Program-made: the position numbers and the translations under genes
In this document: positions 56,707 to 59,058 of the stretch, one piece after another
Position numbering within the stretch: the stretch's first letter is position 1
Layout of the letters: every line of letters starts with the position of its first letter
From: Massariosphaeria phaeospora
Lineage: Eukaryota; Ascomycota; Dothideomycetes; Pleosporales
NCBI GenBank assembly: GCA_011032825.1
Contig: JAADJZ010000007.1
Coordinates: 1,240,001 to 1,304,000 of the forward strand
Direction of reading: 5' to 3'
Length of the DNA stretch: 64,000 nucleotides
Notes under the pieces: model-generated
Databases searched by the model: none
Told to the model about the DNA's origin: nothing
What the model saw: the letters and a program-made list of their open reading frames with translations, nothing else

Positions 56707-57835
56707 CGTTACAAAAGCCACTCGGGCAGATGCGATAGGGTGATGTCGAAGTAAGTAGATCCGTAGGCCTTCAGCCAGATTCGCGTGCCTAGGCAAGAGA
56801 ATGCAGCAAATGGGGAGTGGTTCAGTTCGGGCTGTCGGTGTGGCGGAGGAGGGGAGGTCCGGAAGACAGCGCGGTATTGTAAGGGAGCAGCCCAGTTGAT
56901 GCTGTTCGTGATATCACGAAAGCCGCCCAGGCAGCTACGATAGGATGATGTTGAAGCAAGAAGAGCCTCATGGATCTCGGCCAAATTAGGGTACTCGAGC
57001 AAGAGGACGCTGAAGAAGCGGGGTTCTAGTATGGGCTCTCGATGTAACTAAAAGGAAGAAGTACGTACAGATGAGGGGTGTCGTGTCGGATGCTACTTCA
57101 TAGCGTTACGAAAGCCACCCAGACAGATATAATGGGATCAATGTTGAAGCAAGACGATGGTCGCAGGGCTTCGCCGATCTAGGGTACTCAACCAAGAGGA
57201 CGCCGACGAAATAACTCCATCAATCTAGGCTGTCGCTGTCGCTGTAGTACGGGTAGAGGGGAAGTGCGATATGAATTACTCGTAGCGCTACAATGGCCAT
57301 TTAGGTAGGTACGATAGAGTGATGTCGAAGCAAGCAGATGCTCGGGGCTTCTGGCCAGTCTAGGGTACCTAAGCAAAAGGAAGCCGACAAAACAGCCCCT
57401 GAAGATACGAGCTGTCGCTGTGACTGGGATAGAAGTAGTGGAAGTACGTGGGGTACTCGCGGCGTTACAATAACCACTGAGGTGGATACGATAGGGCGAT
57501 GTCGCAGCAAGCCGATGCTCACGTTTTTGTCCAGCTTGACGTACCCGGGCAACAGGACGCTGGTCAAAGGCTTCGTTCCGTTGGGGTGTTGTCGTGGATA
57601 GATAGATGCACTGAATGAGCATGTCAGCGTTCAACGAAGCCAACGAAGTAATTACTCGTAGGCATTACGACAGTCACTGTGGGAGATACGATAGGGCGAT
57701 ATCGAAACAAGAAGATGAGGGAAGTCTGGGCCAGATCGGCGTGTCTGGACAAGAGGATGCGTGGAAAGAGCTGCGGAGGGCTGCGGCTGCACACGAATTC
57801 GCGGTGGTGTGCACCGGCTCGGATCGTTATCGATA
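56707..57835 (+). repeat. About six degenerate tandem repeats of 177-207 bp
   Basis: Units begin near 56,707, 56,914, 57,104, 57,285, 57,462 and 57,663. Each contains a version of GCGTTACAA-AGCCAC, then GATACGATAGGGYGATGTCG, AAGCAAGCAGATG, and a GGGTACYYRAGCAAGAGGAC block, with GCTGTCGCTGT in several units. Divergence between units is high. Frames on the minus strand run through several units (SPYRIHLSGYC-like peptides) but carry no gene signals. Confidence 0.75.
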
Positions 57836-58046
57836 ACAAGTCCTTCTGGCCCTCTGCTCCCGGGGTCTTGCGTCGTCACCCGAGATGCCCGAGATGCTAG
57901 TCCCATTACGGACGCCGGGAGAACGTCGGGGCTTCCGGGAGAACGTCGGTGGCTCGCTTGTTTTTTGCTGAGTCACTAGCGCGAGGCCGTCGCGCAGCCG
58001 TATACAGTCCCCCCGCTCCCTCGCCCCGATCCTCTTTTTTTTCTCC
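57836..58046 (+). promoter_or_regulatory. Likely U2 snRNA promoter
   Basis: This region lies just upstream of the inferred U2 5' end. A TATACAG sequence lies at 58,001-58,007, about 45 bp before the start, followed by pyrimidine tracts. Two copies of GGGAGAACGTCGG lie near 57,917-57,950. Confidence 0.4.
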
Positions 58047-58386
58047 TTAGCTCTGTAAGAAATCTCCTCCCCCCCCTCTACGGTTTGATTGCTAACAATT
58101 TCCAGCTTTGCCTTTTGGCTTAGATCAAGTGTAGTATCTGTTCTTTTTAGTTGTAAGTGATCTCTGCCTGCTACCCTTTCCTTTGCTAACATGTCAGTAA
58201 TCACTAAAATGCCAATACGTTGGCTTTATGATTATTCCAATTTTTGCAAACGGGTCTCTTCTCCCTGGGCTTGCCTATAGTCGAGGCCACAGTGTCGCTG
58301 GTATGTTCTACTCTACTCTAACTTCTTCTCGTGTCAGAATGTTAACTCTATTTAGGTATTGCACTATCTCCAGCTGATGCGAACAC
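58047..58386 (+). ncRNA. U2 spliceosomal RNA gene interrupted by three introns
   Basis: The landmark GCCTTTTGGCTTAGATCAAG followed by TGTAGTATCTGTTCTTTT (58,110-58,148) is the conserved U2 5' domain with the branch-site-pairing GTAGTA. I infer exons at about 58047..58054, 58106..58152, 58198..58300 and 58356..about 58386, with introns 58055-58105, 58153-58197 and 58301-58355. Each intron has a GTAAGA/GTAAGT/GTATGT donor, a TAAC branch site and an AG acceptor. Splicing gives CTCT+CTTTGCC at the 5' end as in S. pombe U2. It closes stem IIa (TTTTAGT, loop TTAATC, ACTAAAA) and joins GCTG+GTATTGCACTATCTCCAGC as stem-loop IV. GCCAATACGTTGGC forms stem IIb, and AATTTTTG (58,239-58,246) is the Sm site. 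Summed exons are about 188 nt, the size of U2. The exact 5' and 3' ends are estimates. Confidence 0.9.
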
Positions 58387-58508
58387 CTTTTTTCATTGAC
58401 TTGGTTGCTCTTGAGCGATCAGTTGAAGAAGAAGATTTTGAGCTAGCTATGCGTGGCATTCCTACCATACGCTGCCTAACATTAGTGCGATACTTCTGCA
58501 GTAGGTTC

Positions 58509-58550
58509 GTGTCGCCAGTATTGCACTGTCTCTGGCTGACGCGAACAGCT
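58509..58550 (+). pseudogene. Second copy of the U2 3' stem-loop, intronless
   Basis: GTGTCGCCAGTATTGCACTG then TCTCTGGCTGACGCGAACAG repeats the spliced U2 3' end (GTGTCGCTG+GTATTGCAC, TATCTCCAGCTGATGCGAAC) about 150 bp downstream. No intron interrupts it. The stem is kept by paired changes (GCCAG/CTGGC against GCTGG/CCAGC). The flank downstream (TTTTCATTGA, TTGAAGAAGA) is duplicated too. Confidence 0.7.
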
Positions 58551-59058
58551 TTTCATTGAGACATCTGGCTTTGCCGGGTGCTTGAAGAAGAGTTATCTGG
58601 TGATTGGGCTGGCTGCGAGCTTGTTGGATTGTAGACAGCTATTTTGCTGTTTGTGGGCTAAAATTCGACTGCATTAAAACTCAGCTCCAGAGGCTTGGCT
58701 GGGCTGGACGACGATGAGCTGTAGGCTTCTTCTCAATAGACTGTGCTCTCAAGTCTTTCGCGCTTTCAATTTTGACAGCTGGTGTAGTGAGATCGGTGCT
58801 TCTGTATCTTGCGCCAGGACTCGCACAACGCGATGTTTAAAGCAGAGCGACGAGGCGACGCCGCAAGCAAAACGACACACCTTGAGATCTGCCATCCTCA
58901 GTTCATAGATCGGTAGACGGCTGCTGCGTCGAGATTTTGCGGACGTTGTGGCCGCACTCACTTTCTCGCTGTTGCGTTTGCTGCAAGCAACAACAAACAA
59001 CCTCACCCCACCAGCCCGCCTCAAACTCCGACAACCACGCCAAATCCCGTCAACCAAC
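58551..59058. promoter_or_regulatory. Intergenic, translin upstream region
   Basis: About 500 bp between the U2 repeat and translin. No additional gene recognised. Confidence 0.35.

What the first reader, a model, noticed from the sequence alone, without database searches (positions are those of the whole stretch)
58047..58386. U2 snRNA gene carrying three spliceosomal introns
Seen: the conserved U2 5' domain, Sm site and stem-loop IV are present in order but separated by three segments of 51, 45 and 55 nt. Each has a canonical donor (GTAAGA, GTAAGT, GTATGT), a TAAC branch site and an AG end. Removing them restores the 5' end, closes stem IIa with a perfect 7-bp stem, closes stem IV, and gives about 188 nt. 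Known: mRNA-type introns have been described in a few fungal snRNA genes (S. pombe U6; several snRNAs in Rhodotorula). Inference: U2 here must be spliced by spliceosomes that already contain U2, a self-dependent loop. Introns sit in the stem I leader, the IIa loop and stem IV, all functional sites.
Basis: partly seen in the sequence, partly recalled or inferred. Interest (0 to 1): 0.92.

Follow-up and report, generated by a model that had tools for sequence, protein, structure and literature searches.

The report
Splicing RNA gene interrupted by introns
In this fungus a gene for U2, one of the RNAs that cuts introns out of messages, is itself interrupted by three introns, and no full-length U2 gene free of introns was found in the genome assembly, so making the splicing machine appears to need a splicing machine that already exists.

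Summary
Confirmed and extended. Window 58049-58385 (+) is a U2 snRNA gene with three GT..YTAAC..AG introns (51, 45, 55 nt). The host is very probably Massariosphaeria phaeospora (Pleosporales). Its 42-Mb assembly yielded four full-length U2 genes with 1, 2, 3 and 3 introns, spanning 234, 289, 335 and 337 nt; all four splice to exactly 186 nt, gap-free, with compensatory changes in stems IIa, IIb and IV. The stem IIa intron is in all four, and no uninterrupted IIa junction was found. The leader intron (which splits U2/U6 helix II) and the stem IV intron have exact empty sites in paralogues. Introns also occur in U1 (2 of 5 places, inside AUACUU^ACCU), U4 (2 of 5, inside U4/U6 stem II) and U6 (1 of 6), not in the single U5 match. 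mRNA-type introns in snRNA genes are a known kind (recalled). A filamentous ascomycete with several introns per U2 gene, no intron-free U2 and U4 introns did not turn up in my limited literature searches. Splicing is inferred: there are no RNA data, three of four IIa acceptors are not YAG, and unspliced pre-U2 might be partly active.

The parts
57967..57988 (+). snRNA promoter box GCTGAGTCACTAGCGCGAGGCC
   Evidence: A similar box (GCTGASTN(2-3)CTAGCGC) lies upstream of all four U2 genes and two of four U4 genes examined; sequence
58000..58006 (+). TATA-like element GTATACA, weaker than the TATATAA of the one-intron copy
58049..58054 (+). U2 exon 1, 6 nt (AGCTCT); 5' end inferred
   Evidence: the same letters lie directly before CTTTGCC in the copies without this intron (C7, C51)
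58055..58105 (+). intron 1 (51 nt), splits the U2 strand of U2/U6 helix II
   Evidence: empty site in C7 and C51
58106..58152 (+). U2 exon 2: most of stem I, branch-site-recognition GTAGTA at 58131-58136, 5' strand of stem IIa
58153..58197 (+). intron 2 (45 nt) in the stem IIa loop; this site is filled in all four U2 genes
   Evidence: no empty site found in the assembly
58198..58300 (+). U2 exon 3: 3' strand of IIa, stem IIb, Sm site (ATTTTTG at 58240-58246), stem III, most of the 5' strand of stem IV
58301..58355 (+). intron 3 (55 nt) in the 5' strand of stem IV
   Evidence: empty site in C51
58356..58385 (+). U2 exon 4: stem IV loop (TATTGCAC) and 3' strand; 3' end inferred
58393..58432 (+). 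3' element TCATTGA-hairpin-TTGAAGAAGA, shared with U1 and U4 genes; role in 3'-end formation inferred
58505..58591 (+). second, uninterrupted stem IV hairpin plus a second 3' element, also present downstream of the C7 U2 gene

Best explanation
The locus is one of four U2 snRNA genes of a pleosporalean fungus. It is transcribed as a roughly 337-nt precursor from an snRNA-type promoter. The ordinary major spliceosome removes three short mRNA-type introns to give a 186-nt U2. The introns sit inside the U2 strand of U2/U6 helix II, in the stem IIa loop and in stem IV. Because every full-length U2 gene found in the assembly carries at least the IIa intron, newly made U2 depends on U2-containing spliceosomes already present, inherited through the mycelium and spores. 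Shown from sequence: exons, introns, paralogues, empty sites for two of three sites, covariation. Inferred: transcription, removal of the introns, self-dependence.
For: Four U2 genes of span 337, 335, 289 and 234 nt all give 186 nt on removal of GT..AG introns. The mature sequences align without gaps at 155-166 of 186 identical. Of 40 pairs, 6 show changes on both sides (shuffled mean 3.3; 6 of 500 shuffles reach 6); covariation score 0.308 against a shuffled mean of 0.166 (0 of 500 reach it); slid structures score 0.129 or less. Covarying pairs 49-62 (IIa), 155-173 and 156-172 (IV) are separated by an intron. Intron 2 of the window copy is slid by 1 nt against the other three copies, yet the mature letters are the same. 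The U2 Rfam score falls with intron number: 133.7 (one), 104.8 (two), 87.0-91.4 (three). Paralogue empty sites are exact for the leader and stem IV sites and for the U1, U4 and U6 introns. All 14 snRNA introns are GT..AG with YTAAC, the branch A 8-17 nt before the end. No uninterrupted U2 was found. In duplex calculations on short pieces, removing the introns strengthens U2/U6 helix II (-5.8 to -12.9), U4/U6 (-10.6 to -23.0) and U1 with a consensus 5' splice site (-5.1 to -12.0 kcal/mol).
Against: No RNA data. Three of four IIa acceptors are AAG or GAG rather than YAG, and only 8 of 14 donors fit GTRWGT exactly (consensus from PMC5832005). U1 pairing with the three window donors is weak (-4.3, -6.2, -5.3 against -12.0 for the consensus), and U2 pairing with six branch regions gave only -0.7 to -5.2, weakest for the stem IV intron. 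The two three-intron copies have the weakest TATA elements among the U2 genes, so they may be minor or silent. 'Further pair types' did not exceed shuffles clearly (68 of 500), and two copies lose the innermost IIa pair. Four paralogues are few. Intron similarity between C49 and C51 at IIa is no better than shuffles (122 of 300). The fall of Rfam score with introns is not seen throughout U4: an intronless copy scores lowest (55.2). The assembly could lack an intronless U2.
Confidence: 0.87

Rival explanations
1. The introns are real and spliced, but there is no strict self-dependence: unspliced or partly spliced pre-U2 works well enough to start new spliceosomes, because the insertions lie at the 5' end, in a loop and near a stem tip, and leave the branch-recognition core intact.
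For: Exon 2 from stem I through GTAGTA is uninterrupted and the raw gene still scores 87 bits against Rfam U2. In the IIa and IV insertions most flanking pairs could still form around a larger loop (structure; not folded). That yeast tolerates changes in helix II is recalled, not tested.
Against: The leader insertion weakens U2/U6 helix II from -12.9 to -5.8 kcal/mol. The stem IV insertion separates the stem from its loop.
Confidence: 0.3
2. The three-intron copies are silent or decaying paralogues, and cellular U2 comes only from the C51 (one intron) and C7 (two introns) genes.
For: C51 has a TATATAA box and the best Rfam score; C49 and C1 have GTATACA and TTCATAG there.
Against: Both three-intron copies keep exactly 186 nt, the Sm site and stems, compensatory changes and the 3' element. 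Decaying copies should show indels in exons, and neither does. This rival keeps the IIa intron in every active copy.
Confidence: 0.2
3. The inserts are not introns but expansion segments kept in the mature RNA.
For: Some fungal snRNAs are enlarged by expansion segments (recalled). For IIa no empty site exists in this genome.
Against: All inserts begin GT, end AG and hold YTAAC near the end; paralogues lack five of the six sites' inserts exactly; the U1 insert would break 5' splice-site recognition; the inserts carry indels between copies while the U2 exons carry none.
Confidence: 0.03
4. An intronless U2 gene exists but is missing from the assembly.
For: The assembly has 51 contigs and its completeness is not given.
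Against: U1, U4 and U6 intronless copies were found in the same assembly. The U2 genes lie on four different contigs, not in a tandem array that would collapse.
Confidence: 0.08

Closest known systems
U2 snRNA gene of Rhodotorula hasegawae with an mRNA-type intron (Takahashi et al. 1993; recalled, paper not held)
   Same: mRNA-type spliceosomal intron inside a U2 gene, in a fungus that also has introns in other snRNA genes
   Different: One intron there, just downstream of the branch-recognition region (recalled); here one to three per gene, at the 5' end, IIa loop and stem IV, in a filamentous ascomycete
Introns in U6 genes of Schizosaccharomyces and other fungi (Tani and Ohshima; Canzler et al. 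2016; recalled; not held)
   Same: mRNA-type intron in a spliceosomal RNA gene; one of six U6 places here has one
   Different: U6 is made by polymerase III; here the introns are mainly in U1, U2 and U4 genes
Introns in fungal U3 snoRNA genes (PMC5832005; parts 1 and 2 of 3 read)
   Same: Small structured RNA genes with 5' spliceosomal introns; copies with and without introns in one genome, including a Dothideomycete
   Different: U3 is not part of the spliceosome, so no self-dependence arises
Introns in U1 and U5 genes of Rhodotorula hasegawae (Takahashi et al. 1996; recalled)
   Same: Introns in conserved functional sequences of snRNAs
   Different: Here U4 also has introns and the single U5 match found has none

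Membership tests
U2 snRNA (RF00004) | Score over the Rfam gathering threshold | tested here: met
   87.0 bits against 46 even unspliced
U2 snRNA (RF00004) | Branch-site-recognition GUAGUA in the conserved 5' domain | tested here: met
   58131-58136; 20-mer identical in all four full copies
U2 snRNA (RF00004) | Stems I, IIa, IIb, III, IV and Sm site | tested here: met
   40 of 40 pairs form in the spliced window copy; Sm site read from the sequence
U2 snRNA (RF00004) | Stable U2-length RNA in the cell | not testable with these tools
   No RNA data
mRNA-type (U2-type) spliceosomal intron | GT..AG ends, YTAAC branch site near the 3' end, fungal length | tested here: met
   14 of 14 snRNA introns are GT..AG with YTAAC (branch A 8-17 nt from the end), 45-76 nt long; 3 of 14 acceptors are not YAG, 6 of 14 donors are not GTRWGT
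mRNA-type (U2-type) spliceosomal intron | Exact absence in a homologous gene | tested here: met
   Leader: C7, C51; stem IV: C51. Not met for IIa, where all four copies carry it
mRNA-type (U2-type) spliceosomal intron | Removal from the transcript, lariat | not testable with these tools
   No RNA data
Self-dependent U2 (no intron-free gene) | No intronless U2 in the genome | tested here: met
   within the limits of a 51-contig assembly and of searches that score best candidates only

The most novel reading that the evidence does not exclude
This fungus has no U2 gene that can be expressed without splicing, so its spliceosome is transmitted in part as a self-templating ribonucleoprotein. The snRNA introns arose by reverse splicing at the spliceosome's own pairing surfaces (U1 5' end, U2/U6 helix II, U4/U6 stem II) and at least once moved from one snRNA to another (U1 and the U2 leader).
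Probability: 0.3. Interest if true: 0.88.

Novelty: new variant of a known kind. Interest (0 to 1): 0.68.

Why it matters
A cell with no intron-free U2 gene would be a natural case of a machine that is needed to make its own part, and a test of how such a loop starts, is kept and is regulated. U2 paralogues with one, two and three introns, beside U1, U4 and U6 paralogues with and without one, put filled and empty sites side by side in one genome. That makes the old reverse-splicing proposal for the origin of introns in spliceosomal RNAs testable. It also warns that annotation by uninterrupted RNA models will truncate such genes, as the U2 model does here by starting inside the first intron.

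Tried and rejected
Expansion segments rather than introns: rejected on empty sites and splice signals. Pseudogene: unlikely, no exon indels and compensatory changes. Shared origin of snRNA introns across sites: the best cross-site pair is U1 (C10) with the U2 leader (C49). Its score of 20.0 was reached by 16 of 2000 local shuffles, and the maximum over 79 cross pairs was reached in 2 of 300 shuffled sets. That is suggestive only: both are pyrimidine-rich, the other U1 intron with the same leader gives 600 of 2000, and the accepted leader pair C49/C1 does no better (17 of 2000). The 57 background introns were pattern-made candidates, not verified introns. A search with one intron (U1 of C10 with short flanks, 63 bases) found only the two intron-bearing U1 genes, so no sign of a mobile family for that intron; the U2 introns were not searched in this way. 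Relatives outside this genome: viral contigs 0 exact matches; genome contigs gave three stretches from two records. The two that I read are uninterrupted at IIa, look like eukaryotic contamination of bacterial bins, and are too distant to help. I could not score the spliced letters with the Rfam model, because that tool reads only held sources; the trend over intron number stands in for it. Window proteins served only to place the host; the PDB search of one of them had no match. Notebook entry 2 calls U1 single-copy and gives rough U4 and U6 intron lengths; supersede it.

Full report
What was checked. The raw window has one Rfam match over gathering score, U2 (RF00004) at 58098-58326 (+), 87.0 bits, E 7.8e-16. 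The match starts inside the first intron because the 6-nt exon 1 lies 51 nt upstream. Reading the sequence with splice signals gives exons 58049-58054, 58106-58152, 58198-58300, 58356-58385 and introns 58055-58105 (51), 58153-58197 (45), 58301-58355 (55), mature length 186.

Host. A phenol 2-monooxygenase-like gene in the window best matches a protein named as Massariosphaeria phaeospora (92% over 90% of the query; the next best hit is 67%) on a contig of 1,770,767 bases. That is the length of contig C49 on which the window lies. The species belongs to Pleosporales, Dothideomycetes. The assembly has 42.08 Mb in 51 contigs.

U2 genes of the genome. The Rfam search listed five places, four over the cut-off. 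The branch-recognition 20-mer was sought with up to 2 mismatches; the five places found all match exactly. Four of them are full U2 genes: C51 (one intron, IIa), C7 (two: IIa, IV), C1 (three) and C49, the window (three). The fifth, on C3, is a fragment of about 23 bases. The fifth Rfam place, on C34, has a promoter and the U2 3' half but a foreign 5' half. Spans of 234, 289, 335 and 337 nt all become 186 nt. Mature sequences differ at 20-31 of 186 positions with no indel. Introns at the same site are alignable above shuffles and carry indels in 9 of 10 pairs by my alignment or in length-balanced form in the tenth; the exception for similarity is C49 with C51 at IIa, not above shuffles (122 of 300).

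Evidence that the spliced form is the selected form. On the gap-free alignment of four copies and a 40-pair U2 structure, 98.8% of cells pair. Six pairs change on both sides (6 of 500 shuffles reach this), covariation 0.308 against 0.166 shuffled (0 of 500), and at most 0.129 when the partner is slid; further pair types are not clearly above shuffles (68 of 500). The structure was drawn on one of these sequences, which favours it over slid versions, and four rows are few. Three covarying pairs (49-62 in IIa, 155-173 and 156-172 in IV) have an intron between their halves. Two of the four copies (C1, C7) lose the innermost IIa pair, 52-59. The window's IIa intron is displaced by one base relative to the other copies (GTT^TAATC against GTTT^AATC), with the same mature letters there. 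U2 Rfam scores fall with intron number: 133.7, 104.8, then 91.4 (C1; 87.1) and 87.0. For U1 the intronless C8 and C26 score 47.7 and 46.3, the intron-bearing C49 38.3, and C10 is not listed; all are under the U1 gathering score of 69.5. For U6 the intron copy scores 63.0, the others 69.2-79.8. For U4 the trend fails: intronless 102.6, intron-bearing 90.0 and 89.3, but a diverged intronless copy 55.2.

No intron-free U2. The uninterrupted IIa junction TTYAGTTTAATCWCTRRAA, with up to 3 mismatches, has 118 places against 80 for the reversed control. The list, ordered by mismatches and cut short, begins with two places at 2 mismatches, so none has 0 or 1. The leader intron is absent from C7 and C51 and the stem IV intron from C51, each exactly. 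So splicing of IIa is needed for every full U2 copy found; splicing of the other two introns is not.

Other spliceosomal RNAs. U1: five places. C49 and C10 have a 52- and 51-nt intron between ATACTT and ACCTTC, inside the 5' splice-site-recognition sequence. C8, C26 and a diverged AT-rich copy at C49:1343358 read ATACTTAC without interruption. U4: five places over cut-off. C28 (57 nt, after AAGT) and one C50 copy (76 nt, after AAGTG) have an intron, again one base apart with corresponding mature positions. Another C50 copy and C34 have the empty site; C23 is a truncated copy that I did not score for the intron. U6: six places, one on C48 with a 54-nt intron (GTACGT..CTAAC..CAG) and five without. 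U5: one place, no intron; a loop pattern found that place and one 2-mismatch place in what looks like a coding gene. A U5 gene with an intron inside the loop could have been missed. In all, 14 introns at six sites: 14 of 14 GT..AG; 14 of 14 with YTAAC, branch A 8-17 nt from the end; 11 of 14 YAG acceptors; 8 of 14 donors GTRWGT. A survey of fungal U3 introns gives GTRWGT for nearly two thirds of donors, RCTRAC, YAG and a mean branch-to-acceptor distance of 15 nt (PMC5832005, parts 1-2 of 3 read).

Where the introns lie. The U2 leader intron falls inside an 11-pair U2/U6 helix II (AGCUCU^CUUUG with CAAAGAGAAGCU, one bulge): -12.9 kcal/mol spliced, -5.8 with the intron start in place. The U4 intron of C50 falls inside U4/U6 stem II: -23.0 against -10.6. 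The U1 intron of C49 falls inside the helix with the 5' splice site: -12.0 against -5.1. The U6 intron lies one base upstream of the U6 strand of helix II. These are duplex calculations on short pieces, not folds of whole particles. The same call gave weak pairing of U1 with the three window donors (-4.3, -6.2, -5.3) and of U2 with six branch regions (-0.7 to -5.2). The IIa and IV introns lie in a loop and in a stem. Four of six sites are thus in or beside intermolecular pairing surfaces; no significance test was made.

Gene anatomy. All four U2 genes and two of four U4 genes share a box GCTGASTN(2-3)CTAGCGC. The genes have a TATA element of varying quality. A 3' element TCRTTGA-hairpin-GARGAAGA was matched in 11 of 12 U1, U2 and U4 genes scanned (the pattern missed one U4 copy, and in C7 it took the second of two elements). 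The window and C1 copies have poor TATA boxes.

Mechanism and its limits. Most likely an ordinary polymerase II snRNA precursor is spliced by the major spliceosome before or during particle assembly. The supply of U2 is then self-dependent through the IIa intron, carried over generations by inherited particles. Transcription, splicing and dependence are inferred. A weaker form, in which unspliced pre-U2 has some activity, is not excluded.

Novelty. mRNA-type introns in U2, U1, U5 and U6 genes of Rhodotorula and in U6 of fission yeast are known (recalled; searches show that two of these papers are not held). [quoted passage not shown] My searches showed titles and starts of abstracts, often only a small part of the papers found (for example 20 of 1,270, 15 of 292; two searches found none). 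Among those listed I saw no report of U4 introns, of several introns in one U2 gene, or of a genome without intron-free U2. Three papers that mention introns in U6 or intron-containing U6 were not opened. The library lacks most subscription papers. I therefore call it a new variant of a known kind.

Noticed in passing
window 58505-58591; also L002 about 1894-1986: Downstream of the U2 gene lies a second, uninterrupted U2 stem IV hairpin with an extended stem (GTTCGTGTC..GACGCGAAC), a TATTGCAC loop and its own 3' element. It is also present downstream of the C7 U2 gene and by eye looks better conserved between the two than the spacer before it. It could be a tandem relic, an alternative last exon or a small RNA.
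   Followed up: partly
L005 about 1400-1680 (C34:1972084): A chimeric gene: snRNA promoter box and TATA, a foreign 5' half with a strong hairpin, then a U2-like Sm site, stem III, uninterrupted stem IV and 3' element (43.6 bits, just under cut-off). It has no branch-recognition sequence; possibly a new Sm-class RNA or a pseudogene.
   Followed up: partly
L017 about 1473-1640 (C9:113647): The only U5 match has a U6-like layout: TATATA about 28 nt upstream, a GGTTCGACCC B-box-like sequence and a T run downstream, unlike the U1, U2 and U4 genes. It may be made by polymerase III, or be a copy placed in such a context.
   Followed up: partly
L015/L016 (C48:1899366-1900900): Two U6 copies about 1.3 kb apart on opposite strands; one carries the intron, the other is diverged, with a broken T run and no TATA that I could see.
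   Followed up: no
L030 (C49:1343358-1343444): A strongly AT-shifted U1 copy, 77% identical over 87 bases to the C49 U1, looks like a product of repeat-induced point mutation.
   Followed up: no
L007 about 1494-1523 (C3:1183839): A bare fragment CAAGTGTAGTATCTGTTCTTTTC of U2 preceded by GAGCTCTC, as if a U2 5' end with stem I deleted had been inserted; too short to show splicing.
   Followed up: no
window about 56711-57775: Degenerate direct repeats with about 205-base offset (63% identity over 902 aligned bases) upstream of the U2 gene.
   Followed up: no
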